Assembly: GCA_018266335.1 (NCBI GenBank)
Contig: JAFEAR010000224.1
Location: forward strand, 1 to 32,748
Direction: 5' to 3'
From: Bdellovibrionales bacterium
GTDB lineage: Bacteria; Bdellovibrionota; UBA2428
DNA: 32,748 bases
Position 1 is the first letter of the stretch, and every line of letters starts with the position of its first letter. Below, piece after piece: positions 1,533 through 22,749 of this stretch. Below the pieces are notes generated by a model. The model saw only the letters and a list, made by a program, of their open reading frames with translations. It had not been told where the DNA came from and did no database searches. A program made the translations under genes and the position numbers.

Positions 1533-1578
1533 CTCCCTTAAGGTAGCCGGCAGGAGCTAGGTGACGGTAATCGGTATT

Positions 1579-1606
1579 TTGACACCTCTTTTGCTGCGCG
1601 TAGTCA
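1579..1606 (+). promoter_or_regulatory. Candidate sigma70-type promoter for the PIF1-like helicase
   Basis: A perfect -35 hexamer TTGACA (1579-1584) is followed after 16 bp by TAGTCA (1601-1606), a weak -10. It lies in the divergent gap and would place transcription start just upstream of the GTG at 1645, which argues against a start at 1561. Confidence 0.3.
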
Positions 1607-1644
1607 GTTTGCCCGTTTGGACAACTGAAGCTAGAAGAACGTGC

Positions 1645-2922
1645 GTGTCGTCGTTGCTCAGTAAACTTCTTCCTAGCCTGCATCCCGATTTGGGGAGCGA
1701 TCAAATTCGAGCGATGGAATTACTTGGGGGCGATCAAAATGTTTTTATCACCGGCAATGCGGGAACGGGGAAGAGCTACGTCATTAATAAGTTCCTCTCC
1801 AAATTAGATCGCAATTTGTTTCCCGTGCTTGCGAGCACGGGGGCGGCGGCGGTGCTCATTGGGGGTCGAACTTTTCACAGCTTTTTTGGTCTGGGCATAA
1901 TGGAGGGCGGCATCGAAGCCACCGTGCAGCGCGCCCTCGAAAACAAGCGCGTAGTAAAACGCCTTAACAAGGCACGGGGTGTAGTGATCGACGAAATTTC
2001 TATGATTCCCGGAGCGGCTTTGGAGGCCGCCGAGCGCATTGCGGCCCTGGCGCGCGGCAAGAGTGGCTCCTGGGGTGGGCTGCGCATTGTGGCGGTGGGC
2101 GACTTCGCCCAACTTCCACCTGTCACGCGCACGGGCCAGCGAGATTGGGCCTTTTTATCGCACGCCTGGCAGCGCACCGAGTTCGATTCGATTTTGCTGC
2201 AAGAAATCATGCGCACTAAAAACGAAGAATTTGCGCGGGCGCTCAACGGTGCTCGCGAGGGGCGTGTAAGCTCCGAGCTACGCAACCTCTTAGATTGGCG
2301 CACGATTACGGATGAAGATCCGGACTTTGAGGGTAGCTTGCTCTTCGCTCGCCGCGACGAAGCCGATCGGCTCAATGCGCAAAAATTGGCGGCCCTGGAT
2401 AATAAGGTGCATGCATTCGAAACTCGATTCGTGGGCGACGAGCGCTTCGTTAAGAGTCTTCGGAGCAACTTGCCCATTGCAGACACGATTGAGCTAAAGC
2501 GCGACGCCTTGGTGATGATTCGTCAGAACGATCCCGAGGGAAAATGGGTTAACGGTAGTCTCGGCAAAGTGCAGTACATCGATGAAGGCCAGTTGGACAT
2601 TCGCTTGCTCTCCGGAAAGACGGTGACCGTCGAGAAGGCCGTCTTTCGCATGAACGATGGCGAAGGTAAGGAATTGGCTACGGCGGCTAACTTTCCGGTG
2701 AGTTTGGCTTGGGCCGTCACCATTCACAAGGCGCAGGGAGCAACGCTCGATCAAGTACGTTTAAATCTCATTCGTCTCTGGGAGCCCGGACAGGCTTACG
2801 TGGCGCTGAGTCGTGTGCGCGATCCAGATGATCTGTTTATTGGTAGTTGGGACGAGCGTTCGATCATTGCCGATCCGCTCGTAAAAAAATTTCACGATCA
2901 GTTGCAAGAACCTAGGTTGTAG
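1645..2922 (+). CDS. PIF1-like superfamily 1B helicase
   Basis: From the GTG at 1645 the protein has 425 residues. It shows the SF1 helicase signature: Walker A GNAGTGKS (37-44), ASTGAAA (motif Ia region), FHSFFG, Walker B VIDEISM (114-120), GDFAQLPPV (152-160), and near the C-terminus TIHKAQGATLD and YVALSRVRDPDDLF. Family members are ATP-dependent 5'-3' DNA helicases that resolve structured DNA and act in replication or recombination. A GTG at 1561 is also in frame, but its extra 28 residues look unlike the family and carry a TTGACA box; 1645 is preceded by AGAAG at a sensible spacing. It overlaps the tail of the convergent receiver gene by 11 bp. The cellular role here is unknown. Confidence 0.85.
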   Translation: MSSLLSKLLPSLHPDLGSDQIRAMELLGGDQNVFITGNAGTGKSYVINKFLSKLDRNLFPVLASTGAAAVLIGGRTFHSFFGLGIMEGGIEATVQRALENKRVVKRLNKARGVVIDEISMIPGAALEAAERIAALARGKSGSWGGLRIVAVGDFAQLPPVTRTGQRDWAFLSHAWQRTEFDSILLQEIMRTKNEEFARALNGAREGRVSSELRNLLDWRTITDEDPDFEGSLLFARRDEADRLNAQKLAALDNKVHAFETRFVGDERFVKSLRSNLPIADTIELKRDALVMIRQNDPEGKWVNGSLGKVQYIDEGQLDIRLLSGKTVTVEKAVFRMNDGEGKELATAANFPVSLAWAVTIHKAQGATLDQVRLNLIRLWEPGQAYVALSRVRDPDDLFIGSWDERSIIADPLVKKFHDQLQEPRL

Positions 2923-3292
2923 CGAAACGGCGAATGGCTTCGAGAAGTTCCCGTATTCCGGTGGGCTTCTTGAGATAGGCATGGCCCCCCACACGTTTTA
3001 GTTTTTCTTCCACGCGGCCATCGGCGGACATGACCACCACGGGGATGTGGGCGTAGCGGGGATCCTTGCGTTGCTCCTCGCGAAACTTATAGCCATCCAT
3101 CACGGGCATCATGAGATCGAGCAAAATGATGTCGGGTTTTTTAACGGCCCGGTTCAAAATATCGAGAGCTTCTTGGCCATTGGCAGCCTGGAGCACCGAA
3201 TAGCCGTTCAACGCCAGCACATCGTAAAAGGCCGCGCGTAAGTCTGCATCGTCTTCTACGAGCAAGACCTGAATGGGCGCAACAATACTCAT
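2912..3292 (-). CDS. Single-domain CheY-like response regulator
   Basis: The 126 residues form one receiver domain with no output domain. The acidic pair is VEDD (residues 12-15), the phospho-acceptor Asp59 lies in LLDLMMP, the conserved Ser89 in VVVMSAD, and Lys109 in LKKP. It starts 14 bp after the stop of the upstream histidine kinase, so the two are almost certainly co-transcribed and cognate. With no DNA-binding or enzymatic domain, it probably passes the signal on by protein contact. The partner is not visible in this window. Confidence 0.92.
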   Translation of the reverse strand: MSIVAPIQVLLVEDDADLRAAFYDVLALNGYSVLQAANGQEALDILNRAVKKPDIILLDLMMPVMDGYKFREEQRKDPRYAHIPVVVMSADGRVEEKLKRVGGHAYLKKPTGIRELLEAIRRFATT

Positions 3293-3306: not shown

Positions 3307-4572
3307 CTAACGGCGCCTCGGAAGTCTGACAAGGAAGAGGGCGCCTTGGCCAACATCGCTGCGGAGGGTGATGGTCCCGCGGTGAGCTTCCACAATTTGC
3401 TTAGTGATGAAGAGTCCCAAACCTAATCCGCCAATGTTTCGCGAGGCCTCGGCGCGTTCAAAACGTTCAAAAATTTTTCTTTGCCGATCTAAAGAAATAC
3501 CGTCGCCAGCGTCTTGCACGCTAAATTCAGCCATATCGGAATTCAGAGCATGGATACGAATATGAATGGGTTTGCCCGGTGCATACTTAATGGCATTGGA
3601 GACTAAGTTGACAAAGATTTGGTCAATGCGCGACCGGTCCCACTCGCCCGTGACGCTAGCGTCCCCGGAGAGATCGATGCAGCACTTGGCGTCCGTCATT
3701 TGGCTGTAGAGACGCTCAATCACGTCTTTGGCCACTTCGCGCAGGTCCATTTCTTCGTAATTCGGAGTGAGCTTGCCGGCCCGAATTCGCGATACGTCGA
3801 GCAGTTCTTCCACTAGTGCTGTCATGCGCCCTACCTGCCGCTCGGCCGTGAGGAGCATCTTTTCGAATTTCTGCATGGTTGGGTCTTCGCGGTGCAGCGA
3901 AGTTGCCGTTAGGTTCGCCAGTTCCAATTGTAGTCTTAAGGAGCTGAGGGGAGTTTTAAGTTCGTGCGAGGCAATGGATAAAAATTCGTCGCGCGTTTCG
4001 AGGGCTTCTTCGAGTCTGGCCGATTGCTCGCGCAGGCGTTCCTCGCGCTCGCGGAGGGCATCGTTGCTGCGATTGAGGTCTCGAGTGCGTTGCTCTACGC
4101 GTCTTTCCATTTCTTGGTAAGCGCGTTGGAGTTCCTTTCCGCGTGATTCCGAGAGCTCTACTGTCTTAGCCAGTCCCATAACTTTGGGTGCGATGGGAAA
4201 CATGTAGATGGCCGTTATCACGGATGCAGTGGCCGTGATAACTTTCACCAGGGCGGCCAGCCAATAGTTGGGACTCCACAGAGTGTAGATATCCATGAAG
4301 TGAGTTGCGCCGCAGGCCAAAATGAAGAAGCCGAAGGCAACAAACATGGCGCTGAAGGGCAAGCGAATTTTGCGCACCGGCCAATAAAGGCTGGCCGAAA
4401 TGGAAACGTAGGCCAATCCGATGAGCAGATCGGTTGTCACCATCGTCCAAACTAGGGAGGGTTTCCACAGGTAGCAGTGCCCGTGAGGCATGAAGTCGGA
4501 ATTCGAAAAATATTCGCTGAGCTTTCCAAGCATTGAACTTAAAGATTCAAGTAGATTTTTCTCGCTAGTCAA
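3307..4572 (-). CDS. Membrane histidine kinase with ethylene-receptor (ETR1-type) sensor domain
   Basis: This is a 421-residue protein. Residues about 40-125 hold three hydrophobic helices that match the ethylene-binding domain of plant ETR1. Helix 1 carries Asp48, Tyr55 and Ile58 (ETR1 Asp25, Tyr32, Ile35). Helix 2 ends FILACGATH with Phe80, Phe83, Ile84, Cys87 and His91 (ETR1 Phe58, Phe61, Ile62, Cys65, His69); the last two bind copper(I) in ETR1. ETR1 Pro36 is Ser59 here. A coiled coil (about 135-195) leads to HisKA with SHELKTP (His203) and to an ATPase domain with NLVSNAIKY (N box), DAGDGIS and GGLGLGLFI. There is no attached receiver; a CheY-like gene follows 14 bp downstream. It is divergent from a plasmalogen desaturase homologue (61 bp between starts). 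Ethylene or another small hydrophobic ligand is an inference from the residues. Confidence 0.9.
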   Translation of the reverse strand: MTSEKNLLESLSSMLGKLSEYFSNSDFMPHGHCYLWKPSLVWTMVTTDLLIGLAYVSISASLYWPVRKIRLPFSAMFVAFGFFILACGATHFMDIYTLWSPNYWLAALVKVITATASVITAIYMFPIAPKVMGLAKTVELSESRGKELQRAYQEMERRVEQRTRDLNRSNDALREREERLREQSARLEEALETRDEFLSIASHELKTPLSSLRLQLELANLTATSLHREDPTMQKFEKMLLTAERQVGRMTALVEELLDVSRIRAGKLTPNYEEMDLREVAKDVIERLYSQMTDAKCCIDLSGDASVTGEWDRSRIDQIFVNLVSNAIKYAPGKPIHIRIHALNSDMAEFSVQDAGDGISLDRQRKIFERFERAEASRNIGGLGLGLFITKQIVEAHRGTITLRSDVGQGALFLVRLPRRR

Positions 4573-4633: not shown

Positions 4634-5329
4634 ATGTCGGGAGCATCCAAAACTCGTGAATCGCTCGTAGCTGGGTACACCTCCGGCTACCGGAGAGTTG
4701 AAATTTGTGCTTTCTTTGGAATGCTCTTCCTGCTGGTGGTGAATGCCTTTAGGGTAAGGTTGATGCCGTCCGATCAGCCGCTTGGGGCGTTGGTTTTGGC
4801 AGTGGCGGCCGCCCTTTTGGCCGATCTATTCTCGGGGCTGGTGCATTGGACCTTTGATACCTGGGGATCTACCGACCTGCCAGTGCTGGGCAATACAGTT
4901 TTACGGGGATTCCGGGAGCACCATGTGGATCCACTGAGCATTACTCGCCATGGCCTTATTCAGGTAACTGGGGGAACGAATATCTTGGGTTGTCTTCTGT
5001 TGTTGGCAGCCTTTGCAACGTCAAGTGTGCCGCTCGTTTGGTTCTTAGGGTGCCTATCGATTTGCGTAGCGTACACAAATATCTCGCACAAATGGGCCCA
5101 CCAGAAAAAAAATGTTCTGCCCGTTCGCGTGTTGCAAAAGTTTCGGCTGGCCCTGCCGGCGTCTATGCACGATCTTCACCACCGGGCGCCCTACGTTAGT
5201 CACTACTGCATCACTTTCGGGTGGATGAACGGTGTGCTCGACGGAATTAATTTTTGGCGCGTGAGTGAGCAAATTTTGATTTTGGCCACGGGTGCGATGC
5301 CGCGTTCCGATGAACAAGCTTACTTTTAA
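4634..5329 (+). CDS. Kua/CarF/PEDS1-type membrane lipid desaturase
   Basis: The 231 residues form a polytopic membrane protein with the His-rich metal-binding pattern of the TMEM189/Kua/CarF family: SGLVHW (His71), REHHVDP (His96, His97), ITRH (His106), NISHKWAH (His152, His156), MHDLHHRAP (His179, 182, 183) and SHYCITFGWMN (His190). Characterised members (human PEDS1, Myxococcus CarF) introduce the vinyl-ether bond that turns plasmanyl- into plasmenyl-ethanolamine, making plasmalogens; CarF thereby takes part in the response to singlet oxygen. The usual Asp after ITRH is Gly here. The gene is divergent from the ethylene-receptor-type kinase, so shared control is possible. AAAGGA lies just before the ATG. 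Family placement is firm; the substrate is inferred. Confidence 0.85.
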   Translation: MSGASKTRESLVAGYTSGYRRVEICAFFGMLFLLVVNAFRVRLMPSDQPLGALVLAVAAALLADLFSGLVHWTFDTWGSTDLPVLGNTVLRGFREHHVDPLSITRHGLIQVTGGTNILGCLLLLAAFATSSVPLVWFLGCLSICVAYTNISHKWAHQKKNVLPVRVLQKFRLALPASMHDLHHRAPYVSHYCITFGWMNGVLDGINFWRVSEQILILATGAMPRSDEQAYF

Positions 5330-19565: not shown

Positions 19566-20011
19566 TTTGAGAGGCGATGAAGTGCCTTGTTGATGGACTC
19601 CGCCATCTCGGGAAAGTAGTCGCCCTGCCGAAAGTTGAGCTCGCGCACCCGTCCGTTCGCCGCAATGTCTTCGAGATGTTCGCGCATACGATGAATGGGG
19701 CCCGCAATGCGGTGGGAGAGTAGGAGTCCACCGATGACGATGGCGAGGGCCGCCACGAGGGAGGTGACAATGAAAACCGAATTCAGCATCGCGCGTTGTT
19801 CCGCGATAAAGCGAAAGAAGGGATGGTCGGGAGGCAAGTTAAGCGACTTGCCGATCTCGATGAATTTCCAAATGAAGTAGTGATTCGAAATGTAAAACAC
19901 GGCAATGGCCGCAGCGGCGATGGCCAGCGTGAAGCCGACGAAGCGCAGCTGGAAGCCGGGGTTGATTAAATAGTTGCGGCGACCGCGTGAAGTCGACTCC
20001 GATGTCATCAT
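19562..20011 (-). CDS. Short HAMP-domain membrane protein
   Basis: The ATG at 20009-20011 overlaps the upstream stop by one base (TGATG). The 149 residues contain TM1 (about 22-42), a short periplasmic loop with PPDHPFFRFIAEQ, TM2 (about 77-99), and then a HAMP-like linker starting SHRIAGPIHRMREHLEDI and ending at the C-terminus. There is no kinase, methyl-accepting or cyclase output domain. Stand-alone HAMP proteins of this kind, which begin with a basic RNYLINPGFQL segment, are seen in Bdellovibrio-like bacteria and are often labelled chemotaxis-like. It is probably an inner-membrane adaptor for the operon. It overlaps the next gene by 4 bp. Confidence 0.75.
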   Translation of the reverse strand: MMTSESTSRGRRNYLINPGFQLRFVGFTLAIAAAAIAVFYISNHYFIWKFIEIGKSLNLPPDHPFFRFIAEQRAMLNSVFIVTSLVAALAIVIGGLLLSHRIAGPIHRMREHLEDIAANGRVRELNFRQGDYFPEMAESINKALHRLSK

Positions 20012-22653
20012 CACTCCAAATGCATGGGCATGCCGTAGGCCGTGCAGCTCATGGTGCAGCTCGGCGGGAAGCACACGCCCTGCGCGGCGCACGCTTCGCC
20101 GCAAATGTGGTGGGTGGCGTTGACGTATACGGGGCCGGTAGGCACGGCAACACCGCCGCAGCCAAAGGTGCCGCCATAGCCCCGCATCGCGGGCAGCGTT
20201 TGCGCTCCTTGCACGCAGCCGGTTGCGTCGTAGTAACCGCCGTAAGCGGACTGTGCCCACGAAGGACGACAGGTGGGAGCGGGCGGTGCGGGCGGCGGAG
20301 CGGTCGTGGCCCAGTTGAGCTGCCGCACGGGACCTACGTTGCCGGCGCGATCGGTCGCGCGCATGGACACTGTGTAGTTGTGATTCGAGCTGAGTCCCGA
20401 ATAAGTGAGCGGGCTAGTGCACGCGGCCCACGCGTAGGTGAGTTCCAGTTGGCACTCAACCTTGGCAATGCCGCTGCCGCCCGAGTCGCTCGACGTGAGG
20501 GTGAATTGTCCACTCGTGGTCGAAGGCGTAACGCCGGTGATGGTGACATCGGGGGCGGAGGTGTCCACGTTCCAAACGGTTTGGTCGGAGGGGCCGGGGG
20601 TGCCATTGCCGTCGATGGGGCGCACGTAGAACGTGTGCGGACCGTTACCGGGTGCCGAGACCGTAGTCGGCGAGGTGCAGCTTGCCCAGGCGCCGGAGTC
20701 GAGCTTGCATTCGTAGCCGGCGGGCGGCGTACCGTTGCAAGTAATGCCGATGTTGACGGAGGTTTGATTGGTCCAGCCCGAGTTGAGTGGGGTGGAGATA
20801 ACGGGCGTGCACGTGGAGCCCACGTAAACGGGCGTGGTGCGGAAGGTCGTAGAGCTTTCGGCGCCTACGTTGCCGGCGACGTCGATCGATTTCACGCGGA
20901 AGGTGTAGTTCGTGTTGAGCGTGAGACCATTATAGGTCACGGGATTGGTGCAGGCGGTCCAGGTGGTGACGCCGTCGAGCTGGCACTGACTCTGCGCAAC
21001 GCCGCTGCCACCCGTATCGGTGGCCGTGAATTGAATCGTTGCCGACTGGTTTACGTTGTTAACCGTGTTGATGCTCGTGGTGGGGCCCACCAAATCTACG
21101 CCCCAATTGAGCGCGAGGCTGGGCTGGCCCACGTTGCCCACACTGTCCGTGGCGCGCACGGAGAAAGCGTAGCTCTGACCAGATTGCAGGCCCGTTAAGT
21201 TGTGGGAGCTCGAAGAAGTACAGCTCGTCCAGGGGGCACTCGCATTCGCGCGGCATTCGTAGCTGGTGAGCGGGATGGGCGACGAACACGTGAAGTTAAT
21301 TGTTTCGGAGCTGTTCTTGCGGAAGGCCGGATTGAAGGCCGTGCTGACGGCACACGAGGGCGGTTGCACGTTGGGTGCAGTCCAAGTGTAGGACGCAGGT
21401 ACACTTTCGTTTCCAGCGAAGTCGGTGCCCTTCACGTTGAAGGTGTGCGACTTGGTGGGAACGATGCCCGAGGTGTAGTTCTTCGGCGAGGTGCACGGAG
21501 TCCAATCGATCACAATGGAGCCGTCGCGAATGAGTTGGCACGTAAAGCCTGCGAGGGGATCGCCGACGCTGTCGCGACCCGTAAAGGTGAAGCCGGGGGT
21601 GAGTGAGGTCACCTGCGCGGACGTGATTTCTACGATGGGTGCGATGGAGTTAACTTTCCATGCGACGTTGGCGCTGGGACTGCGATTGCCAAGGTTGTCG
21701 ACGTAGCGCACGTTGAAGATGTGGTTGCCCTCGCTCAAGTTCGTTACCTGGTGCGTGGTGGGAGAGTCGCAAGGAACCCAAGCGTTGTAGTCGAGGCGGC
21801 ATTCTACGGACGCCAAATTGTTCGACGGAGAGTGGCACTGAAAGTTGAAGGCCTGCGTGCGCAGGCGGCTGTTGGGAGCCACGGCGCTCGTAAAGACGCA
21901 TCCGTCGAAGCTGTTCGAGAAGGGCCGAGTCGTGAAGTCCACGCGACTCTCTCCGCTCGCGTTGCCGGCGTTGTCGAAGGCCTTTACGTAGAAGCTGTAG
22001 GGCGTGTTGCTCGTGAGGGCGAAGTAGTTGATGGGGGCGGTGCAATCGCTCCACGCAGAGTAAATGGGGAGGAGGCGACACTGAAATTTTTTCAGATCGC
22101 TGCCGCCGGAATCACTGCCGGCAAAAGTGAGACTCGCGCTCGTGTCCGTGGTGGCGACCAGGCTGGCGGAGGTGATGGTGGGAGCCGTGCGGTCCACGCC
22201 CCAAGTGGCGTAGGGGCTAGTGCCAAGGGTGGCGTCGGCGTCGGTGCCGCGAACGCGAAACCGGTAAATGCCGTTCGTGAGTCCGGTGAGGGTGTGGCTC
22301 GTCATGGACTGGCAGGTGGTCCAGGCGTCGTCGTTGACCTGGCAATCCACGGCTTTGATTTTTTTGCCGGTCGAGTGCACGCAGTTGAAGGCAAAAGTTT
22401 CGCTCGAGTTGTTGCGCCAGAAATTGGGAATGGGCGTGGTGATGGCGCAGTTGATGGAGCTCACGACTACGTAGAAGTTATTATTGTTCGAATCCTGGGG
22501 GCCGGCATTTTGGGTGCTCCCCGCACTGCCAGCGCTCTCGGCGCTGCCGAAATAGCTGCGATCGACAATCTTCTTACATCCGCTCGCAATCAGTGCGAAG
22601 GCGAAGAAGGGCACCCAACGAATAGCTAATTTGCGGAAAGTAAAAGTAGTCAT
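20011..22653 (-). CDS. Large lipoprotein with eight Ig/FnIII-like repeats and a Cys-rich tail
   Basis: The ATG at 22651-22653 (AGGAA upstream) gives an 880-residue lipoprotein: a lipobox ending ASGC (Cys26), a Ser/Asn-rich linker (about 38-62), then eight modules of about 90 residues centred on a pattern of Cys, 6-14 residues, W, two residues, C, and about 25 residues further on a beta hairpin ending D-x-x-GN. The modules lie roughly at 102-140, 190-230, 284-322, 371-415, 466-507, 557-595, 648-684 and 733-772. The two Cys of each module probably form a disulfide. Residues about 795-880 are Cys-rich (ten Cys). The layout resembles Bdellovibrio adhesin-like surface lipoproteins, so a binding or contact role is inferred. 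A start at 22734 is in frame but lacks a signal. It heads the envelope operon. Confidence 0.85.
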   Translation of the reverse strand: MTTFTFRKLAIRWVPFFAFALIASGCKKIVDRSYFGSAESAGSAGSTQNAGPQDSNNNNFYVVVSSINCAITTPIPNFWRNNSSETFAFNCVHSTGKKIKAVDCQVNDDAWTTCQSMTSHTLTGLTNGIYRFRVRGTDADATLGTSPYATWGVDRTAPTITSASLVATTDTSASLTFAGSDSGGSDLKKFQCRLLPIYSAWSDCTAPINYFALTSNTPYSFYVKAFDNAGNASGESRVDFTTRPFSNSFDGCVFTSAVAPNSRLRTQAFNFQCHSPSNNLASVECRLDYNAWVPCDSPTTHQVTNLSEGNHIFNVRYVDNLGNRSPSANVAWKVNSIAPIVEITSAQVTSLTPGFTFTGRDSVGDPLAGFTCQLIRDGSIVIDWTPCTSPKNYTSGIVPTKSHTFNVKGTDFAGNESVPASYTWTAPNVQPPSCAVSTAFNPAFRKNSSETINFTCSSPIPLTSYECRANASAPWTSCTSSSSHNLTGLQSGQSYAFSVRATDSVGNVGQPSLALNWGVDLVGPTTSINTVNNVNQSATIQFTATDTGGSGVAQSQCQLDGVTTWTACTNPVTYNGLTLNTNYTFRVKSIDVAGNVGAESSTTFRTTPVYVGSTCTPVISTPLNSGWTNQTSVNIGITCNGTPPAGYECKLDSGAWASCTSPTTVSAPGNGPHTFYVRPIDGNGTPGPSDQTVWNVDTSAPDVTITGVTPSTTSGQFTLTSSDSGGSGIAKVECQLELTYAWAACTSPLTYSGLSSNHNYTVSMRATDRAGNVGPVRQLNWATTAPPPAPPAPTCRPSWAQSAYGGYYDATGCVQGAQTLPAMRGYGGTFGCGGVAVPTGPVYVNATHHICGEACAAQGVCFPPSCTMSCTAYGMPMHLE

Positions 22654-22749
22654 GCCAGTTCCTATCGGAGTGCGGGGACTTTCGCTGAAGTTGCACGCCA
22701 ATCCTTTGACATCTTTTGTGGCGCAAGGGGTCACGTTACACTGGGGAGA

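What the first reader, a model, noticed from the sequence alone, without database searches (positions are those of the whole stretch)
3307..4572. Ethylene-receptor-type sensor in a bacterial histidine kinase
Helix 1 (Asp48, Tyr55, Ile58) and helix 2 (Phe80, Phe83, Ile84, Cys87, His91) match, position by position, the residues that form the copper/ethylene site in plant ETR1 (Asp25, Tyr32, Ile35, Phe58, Phe61, Ile62, Cys65, His69). Such sensors are known in cyanobacteria and some other bacteria; in a Bdellovibrio-like organism this would be unusual. The N-terminal 40 residues, including His32/Cys33 in GHCYLW, precede helix 1 and may add to sensing.
Basis: partly seen in the sequence, partly recalled or inferred. 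Interest (0 to 1): 0.8.

Follow-up and report, generated by a model that had tools for sequence, protein, structure and literature searches.

The report
Ethylene-receptor-type kinase, atypical bacterial branch
This bacterial gene encodes a membrane sensor kinase whose sensing part matches the plant ethylene receptor and is predicted to hold copper, but it belongs to a little-studied bacterial branch that lacks one proline reported as needed for ethylene binding in plants, so it likely senses ethylene or a similar small molecule, which remains untested.

Summary
It is not unusual for the group: 59 of 368 genomes of the Bdellovibrionota-type phylum carry it. A related sensor, AzoEtr1 of Azospirillum, binds ethylene and shares the PHGxC signature. 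A tree with that column masked puts the window in a supported branch of 69 rows (Myxococcota-type, Bdellovibrionota-type, metagenomic) with 0 prolines there, against 66 of 77 in the rest, which includes ETR1 and AzoEtr1. So it is a copper-site ETR1-type sensor kinase; ethylene is likely but not established. A receiver gene follows 14 nt downstream. A plasmalogen-desaturase-like gene lies divergently, as in one distant relative.

The parts
3307..4533 (-). sensor histidine kinase with ETR1_N sensor domain (408 aa from ATG 4533; 421 aa from TTG 4572)
   Evidence: ORF; Pfam; start by homologue N-termini
4474..4488 (-). N-terminal signature Pro29-His30-Gly31-His32-Cys33 (PHGxC in the family)
   Evidence: His30 115/135, Cys33 116/135, His32 84/135 in the broader set
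4177..4455 (-). ETR1_N domain (PF25487), residues 40-132, three predicted membrane helices (38-69, 75-99, 103 onward)
   Evidence: E 3.3e-29; model
4396..4398 (-). Ser59 codon at the position of ETR1 Pro36 (tomato Never-ripe site)
   Evidence: passages in PMC6586836 and PMC6727826
4300..4314 (-). Cys87 to His91, equivalents of the ETR1 Cu(I) ligands Cys65 and His69
   Evidence: sequence
3775..3993 (-). HisKA dimerisation/phospho-acceptor domain (residues 194-266; SHELKTP, His203)
3313..3639 (-). HATPase_c kinase domain (residues 312-420) with N, G1 and G2 box motifs present
2912..3292 (-). stand-alone receiver protein (126 aa), 14 nt downstream, likely phosphorylation partner
   Evidence: EDD, LLDLMMP, MSAD, LKKP motifs present
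4634..5329 (+). CarF/PEDS1-type lipid desaturase family gene, divergent; possible regulated neighbour
   Evidence: PF10520 E 8.4e-51; NF045946 169 bits, below its cut-off of 500; same divergent arrangement in G358

Best explanation
The gene encodes a histidine kinase with an ETR1-type sensor domain that is predicted to sit in the membrane and hold Cu(I) between Cys87 and His91, likely senses ethylene through that copper, and would pass the signal to the receiver protein encoded 14 nt downstream. Shown by sequence: the domain, the copper-site residues (Asp48, Cys87, His91, Lys110), the pocket residues (Tyr55, Ile58, Phe80, Phe83, Ile84), the kinase motifs and the adjacent receiver. Predicted: three membrane helices, the third running unbroken into a long helix that ends in the His203 domain (model helix 103-225); Pfam finds no PAS or GAF domain between. 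Inferred: binding of ethylene shifts this third helix and changes autophosphorylation of His203, and Asp59 of the receiver takes the phosphoryl group. Ser59 in place of ETR1 Pro36 means that affinity, ligand or switch direction may differ from plant and AzoEtr1 receptors.
For: PF25487 hit at 101.5 bits, HisKA and HATPase_c. In 120 listed relatives, one of them the window's own protein, Cys87, His91, Tyr55, Ile58, Phe80, Phe83 and Ile84 are each 120 of 120 and Asp48 is 114 of 120. In a broader set Cys87 is 127 of 135 and His91 130 of 135. It is 38% identical over 150 aa to AzoEtr1 as read from an A. brasilense plasmid record; the first 130 residues of AzoEtr1 bind 14C-ethylene saturably in yeast (PMC11819568, passages). 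L119 was taken for AzoEtr1 because it starts with the residues coded by that paper's forward primer and holds those of its reverse primer at residues 125-130. Model: helices 38-69, 75-99 and 103-225, mean pLDDT 85. Conserved residues cluster on one face of each membrane helix (permutation p 0.0004, 0.015 and 0.0006). Receivers commonly go with this domain in the phylum: 24 of 52 usable sensor ORFs have a same-strand ORF containing a receiver within 300 nt and 10 of 52 a fused one.
Against: Pro36, named among residues essential for ethylene binding (PMC6586836, passage), is Ser59. The window's branch has 0 of 69 Pro there, and I know of no member of that branch tested for ethylene binding; the two tested receptors placed in the tree, ETR1 and AzoEtr1, lie in the other part. 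No binding or copper data exist for this protein.
Confidence: 0.55

Rival explanations
1. The branch keeps the copper site but has moved to another ligand of Cu(I), such as carbon monoxide, another small alkene or a lipid-derived volatile, or to sensing copper itself; the loss of Pro36 and a set of smaller helix residues mark that shift.
For: Ser, Ala or Thr at the Pro36 position in 69 of 69 branch rows against 66 of 77 Pro elsewhere, with that column masked when the tree was built. The branch tends to smaller residues at 52, 79, 81, 85 and 116. In the window and in G358 the gene stands divergently beside a lipid desaturase.
Against: All other pocket residues are unchanged. The window itself has Leu, not a small residue, at 85. 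Five of the 77 other rows also have Ser at 59, one of them cyanobacterial (L120). Sites 79, 81 and 85 point away from the conserved face (my arithmetic from the angles).
Confidence: 0.25
2. Ordinary ethylene receptor (a special case of the best explanation, so its odds lie inside it): Ser at the Pro36 position is neutral, and the protein binds and responds to ethylene as AzoEtr1 does.
For: Eight pocket or copper residues plus Lys110 and the PHGxC signature are shared with AzoEtr1. The documented Never-ripe change is Pro to Leu, not to Ser.
Against: Pro36 is listed as essential for binding (passage) and the branch has 0 of 69 Pro.
Confidence: 0.35
3. Degenerate sensor: the domain now serves only as a membrane anchor and dimer module for the kinase.
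For: Some family members have lost a copper ligand: 7 of 124 rows with letters at positions 30, 33, 87 and 91.
Against: Here all copper and pocket residues but Pro36 are kept, and the branch keeps Cys87 in 67 and His91 in 68 of 69 rows (one row has a gap at each).
Confidence: 0.05

Closest known systems
AzoEtr1 of Azospirillum brasilense (EBD-PAS-kinase, demonstrated ethylene receptor; PMC11819568, passages)
   Different: Ser59 where AzoEtr1 has Pro; no PAS domain found here; other part of the tree
Arabidopsis ETR1 (plant ethylene receptor, subfamily 1)
   Same: Asp25, Tyr32, Ile35, Phe58, Phe61, Ile62, Cys65, His69 and Lys91 equivalents; three-helix sensor before a histidine kinase
   Different: No GAF domain and no fused receiver found here; PHGHC in place of the Cys4/Cys6 N-terminus; Ser for Pro36; separate receiver gene
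Cyanobacterial receptors SynEtr1 and GeiEtr1/2 (PMC6682694, passages)
   Same: N-terminal stretch with a single cysteine; ETR1-type domain on a histidine kinase
   Different: SynEtr1 is also a photoreceptor and GeiEtr1 has a GAF domain; Pfam finds only ETR1_N, HisKA and HATPase_c here.
ETR1_N kinases of Myxococcota-type and other Bdellovibrionota-type genomes in the same branch
   Same: Same branch, non-proline at residue 59, copper residues kept
   Different: 25 of the 29 Myxococcota-type matches lie in longer open frames of 821-907 aa; no function found in my searches

Membership tests
ETR1_N sensor domain family (PF25487) | Match above the curated cut-off | tested here: met
   101.5 bits against 27, positions 2-95 of 97
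ETR1_N sensor domain family (PF25487) | Three N-terminal membrane helices ahead of the signalling part | tested here: met
   Predicted helices 38-69, 75-99, 103 onward; prediction only
Ethylene receptor (ETR1 type) | Cu(I) ligands Cys65 and His69, with Asp25 and Lys91 | tested here: met
   Cys87, His91, Asp48, Lys110
Ethylene receptor (ETR1 type) | Pocket residues Tyr32, Ile35, Phe58, Phe61, Ile62 | tested here: met
   Tyr55, Ile58, Phe80, Phe83, Ile84
Ethylene receptor (ETR1 type) | Pro36, named among residues essential for ethylene binding (PMC6586836, passage) | tested here: not met
   Ser59; 0 of 69 Pro in its branch
Ethylene receptor (ETR1 type) | N-terminal cysteine(s) for the disulfide-linked dimer | tested here: inconclusive
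   One cysteine, Cys33, is present and conserved (116 of 135); whether it forms a disulfide or touches copper is unknown
Ethylene receptor (ETR1 type) | Saturable, copper-dependent ethylene binding | not testable with these tools
   Needs expression and radioligand assay
Plant ethylene receptors | GAF domain between sensor and kinase | tested here: not met
   Pfam finds only ETR1_N, HisKA, HATPase_c
Two-component sensor histidine kinase | Phospho-acceptor His, N and G boxes, and a partner receiver | tested here: met
   SHELKTP at 202, NLVSNAIKY at 322, DAGDGI at 354, GLGLGLF at 382; receiver gene 14 nt downstream; the partnership itself is inferred

The most novel reading that the evidence does not exclude
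The window belongs to a second, functionally unexplored branch of the ethylene-receptor sensor family, found in predatory bacterial phyla (Bdellovibrionota and Myxococcota), that kept the copper site but lost the Never-ripe proline and so senses a different copper-binding volatile or switches differently; in this lineage it controls a plasmalogen-type desaturase gene that lies back to back with it.
Probability: 0.2. Interest if true: 0.75.

Novelty: new variant of a known kind. Interest (0 to 1): 0.42.

Why it matters
Bacterial ethylene receptors are known, but the two receptors with demonstrated binding that I could place (ETR1 and AzoEtr1) lie outside this branch. A branch in which the copper site is intact and the plant-essential Pro36 is absent gives a natural test of which residues set ethylene affinity and which set signalling. 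It would also show whether bacteria of these phyla listen to ethylene or to another gas. If the branch binds ethylene, the rule that Pro36 is required is specific to plant-like receptors; if not, a new small-molecule copper sensor is at hand.

Tried and rejected
A MASE-type domain: rejected, because Pfam at E <= 0.001 gives only ETR1_N, HisKA and HATPase_c for this protein; the NCBIfam matches shown lie mainly in the kinase part and under their cut-offs (best 25 of 82 shown). A solved structure of the sensor: no sequence match (E <= 10). An oddity of one genome: rejected, because the domain is in 59 of 368 genomes of the phylum.

CarF pairing as a general rule: rejected. Among the loci held only L111 (genome G358) had a CarF-like gene, though many of those loci reach only about 1.5 kb either side; in the wider stretches fetched again only G358 did (L226). 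In the Myxococcota-type phylum, 20 of the genomes listed also appear; by the printed coordinates the two genes are on different contigs in 13 and over 1 Mb apart on one contig in 7. The 33 metagenomic CarF relatives share with the 120 listed sensor relatives no contig length able to hold both genes, apart from the window itself (one shared length of 1502 is too short); this is weak, since many contigs are short and only 120 of 347 sensor relatives are listed.

Coupling of the N-terminal signature to the copper site: Cys33 is kept in 114 of 117 rows with both copper ligands and 2 of 7 without (Fisher p 5e-6, not corrected for kinship). As a control over 21 well-conserved sites, Cys33 ranks second behind Ile84 and just before Tyr55; Asp48, Lys110 and Ala114 show no link. 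But n is 7, two of the seven are sister rows, and decay of the whole domain explains part of it. It is a lead, not a result. His30 is weaker (p 0.011).

Distances in the model: coordinates are not given by the tool, so none were measured. Two papers that I looked for by id (Azhar 2023, Wang 2006) are not held, so the ETR1 mutant lists come from passages of PMC6586836, PMC8879215, PMC6727826, PMC7285140 and PMC11819568.

Rows dropped or doubtful: identical cores were collapsed; the 135 rows include incomplete or split ORFs (for example L088, L149, L217) and 3 plasmid rows found with the window's own domain; L081 (G002) came from a search whose patterns include the motif and is not listed among the matches. 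Tree rows shorter than 110 aa were left out, and 10 long-branch rows were removed. The Bdellovibrionota-type, Myxococcota-type, Pseudomonadota-type and Bacteroidota-type labels rest on the named locus that seeded each phylum search; the genomes themselves are unnamed.

Full report
What is there. The minus-strand ORF 3307-4572 encodes 421 aa from a TTG. Of the 120 listed relatives, the window's own protein included, 32 start 14-15 residues before the PHG motif, 13 start one residue before it and 11 have no PHG. The database copy of this protein begins at residue 14, so ATG at 4533 is the likelier start. Pfam finds ETR1_N at residues 40-132 (E 3.3e-29, 101.5 bits, cut-off 27), HisKA at 194-266 and HATPase_c at 312-420, and nothing else at E <= 0.001. 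A stand-alone receiver (2912-3292) follows 14 nt downstream. A PF10520 lipid desaturase gene (4634-5329) lies divergently, 100 nt from the ATG or 61 nt from the TTG.

Checking the residues. Aligned with 120 listed relatives (of 347 found), one of which is the window's own protein, Cys87, His91, Tyr55, Ile58, Phe80, Phe83 and Ile84 are each present in 120 of 120, Asp48 in 114 and Lys110 in 113. That list is biased to close relatives, so a broader set was collected by the Pfam profile, whose match begins at about residue 40 and so ignores the N-terminal motif, in four phyla, plus three plasmid rows. In 135 rows: Cys87 127, His91 130, Asp48 120, Tyr55 122, Ile58 122, Phe80 130, Phe83 129, Ile84 120, Lys110 118. 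The ETR1 letters used were recalled; they agree with the residue numbers given in passages of PMC12643061, PMC11819568, PMC6586836 and PMC8879215. Against the record of AzoEtr1 (L119, taken for it because it starts with the residues coded by the published forward primer and holds those of the reverse primer at residues 125-130) the window is 38% identical over 150 aa.

Structure. The AlphaFold2 model (73 sequences, mean pLDDT 85, pTM 0.60) gives helices 38-69, 75-99 and 103-225; the third continues without break to the His203 domain. Cys87 and His91 are i and i+4, 19 and 21 degrees either side of the conserved face of helix 2, and the conservation moment is beyond most shuffles for each helix (permutation p 0.0004, 0.0154, 0.0006). 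So they lie on the same face, as a Cu(I) pair needs. Distances were not measured because no coordinates are given. In the published ETR1 model the Cys65/His69 site is buried in the dimer interface (PMC6586836, passage).

The overlooked residue. A passage of PMC6586836 names I35, P36 and I62 among residues essential for ethylene binding; PMC6727826 and PMC7285140 (passages) say that tomato Never-ripe is Pro36Leu in the ethylene-binding domain. The window has Ser59 there (codon at 4396-4398). A tree of 146 rows, after removal of 10 long-branch rows and with the column of residue 59 masked, places the window among 69 rows (29 metagenomic, 25 Myxococcota-type, 14 Bdellovibrionota-type, and itself) with support 100/95. 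The unmasked tree of the same rows gave the same 69, and the first tree of 156 rows gave 72, the same set plus three rows dropped later as long branches. In that branch residue 59 is Ser 61, Ala 7, Thr 1, Pro 0; in the other 77 rows it is Pro 66, Ser 5, Ala 4, Leu 2. ETR1 and AzoEtr1 are in the other part. The branch keeps the copper site: His91 in 68 of 69 and Cys87 in 67 of 69, with one row a gap at each. Hence the same copper chemistry is likely, but ethylene as the ligand is an inference.

N-terminal motif. The conserved letters are Pro-His-Gly-x-Cys: His30 115, Cys33 116, His32 only 84 of 135, and AzoEtr1 has PHGVC. Four Bacteroidota-type rows have PRWxC and some rows have lost it. PMC6682694 (passage) already suggested that the single N-terminal cysteine of cyanobacterial receptors may stand in for the plant dimer disulfide. 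Cys33 goes with the copper ligands (114 of 117 against 2 of 7) about as strongly as the pocket residues Ile84 and Tyr55 do, but seven losses are too few to separate a copper role from general decay.

How common. Over the cut-off: 59 of 368 genomes of the phylum of G001 (a Bacteriovoracaceae MAG), 28 of 195 of that of G370 (Anaeromyxobacter), 23 of 299 of that of G377 (Legionella), 18 of 296 of that of G371 (Adhaeribacter); 0 of 14 control genomes in each search. So the finding is not unusual for a Bdellovibrio-like organism. For the window's own host, no whole genome is held. Among 21 chosen genomes its SNF2-family protein scores best in G358 (54% over the full length); Myxococcota-type genomes follow by score at 46-47%, and a split copy in G341 has 52% over part. 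Its sugar dehydrogenase scores best in G437 (48%) and has no match in G358. The host is therefore probably a distant relative of G358, but this is unsure.

Neighbours. In the Bdellovibrionota-type loci, 24 of 52 usable sensor ORFs have a same-strand ORF containing a receiver within 300 nt and 10 of 52 a fused receiver, so the receiver next door is the likely partner. CarF-like genes are rare there (11 of 356 genomes, five of them strong). The one genome that appears in both listings, G358, has CarF (39% identical) divergent from its receiver-kinase pair, as in the window; its sensor part is 58% identical over 146 aa. Against a general link: in Myxococcota-type genomes none of 20 with both genes shows them near each other. 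CarF of Myxococcus is the desaturase that makes plasmalogen vinyl ethers and takes part in a photooxidative response (PMC9131029, start of abstract and passages). The window's protein is below the NCBI equivalog cut-off (169 against 500), so its activity is unproven.

Literature. Searches for Bdellovibrio or Bdellovibrionota with ethylene receptor terms (5 and 6 papers, all listed), for myxobacteria with ethylene-binding domain terms (8 of 26 listed) and for predatory bacteria with ethylene perception (none) showed no listed paper whose title or abstract start treats such sensors in these phyla; only open-licence papers are held. Bacterial receptors in proteobacteria and other phyla are reported in general terms (PMC11819568, PMC7700396, passages).

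Verdict. A real ETR1-type, copper-site sensor kinase with a likely partner receiver; a member of the PF25487 domain family. It is not filed as an ethylene receptor, because one residue reported as essential for binding was tested and is absent. In the other residues and domains that I could compare it looks like one. Its main interest is the supported branch without Pro36.

Noticed in passing
window 4634-5329 (+): CarF/PEDS1-type desaturase (PF10520) divergent from the kinase; the same arrangement is found in genome G358 (L226 7000-7764), where several receiver genes also cluster beside it.
   Followed up: partly
(rows L170, L171, L194, L207, L213, L214, L216): Seven family members have lost a copper ligand, yet all seven keep Asp48 and Lys110, which hints at a structural role for that pair independent of copper.
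   Followed up: no
L180, L182, L186, L188 (Bacteroidota-type): A PRWxC variant of the N-terminal signature, keeping the cysteine but not His30.
   Followed up: no
L119 5007 onward: In the A. brasilense MTCC4038 plasmid record the AzoEtr1 frame ends at 207 aa, while the published protein is 525 aa; strain difference or sequencing error, not examined.
   Followed up: no
window 20011-22734 (-): A 907-aa ORF with matches to fibronectin-III and bacterial Ig-like families, likely a surface protein.
   Followed up: no
window 1561-2922 (+): PIF1-like helicase whose 3' end overlaps the 3' end of the receiver gene by 11 nt on the opposite strand.
   Followed up: no
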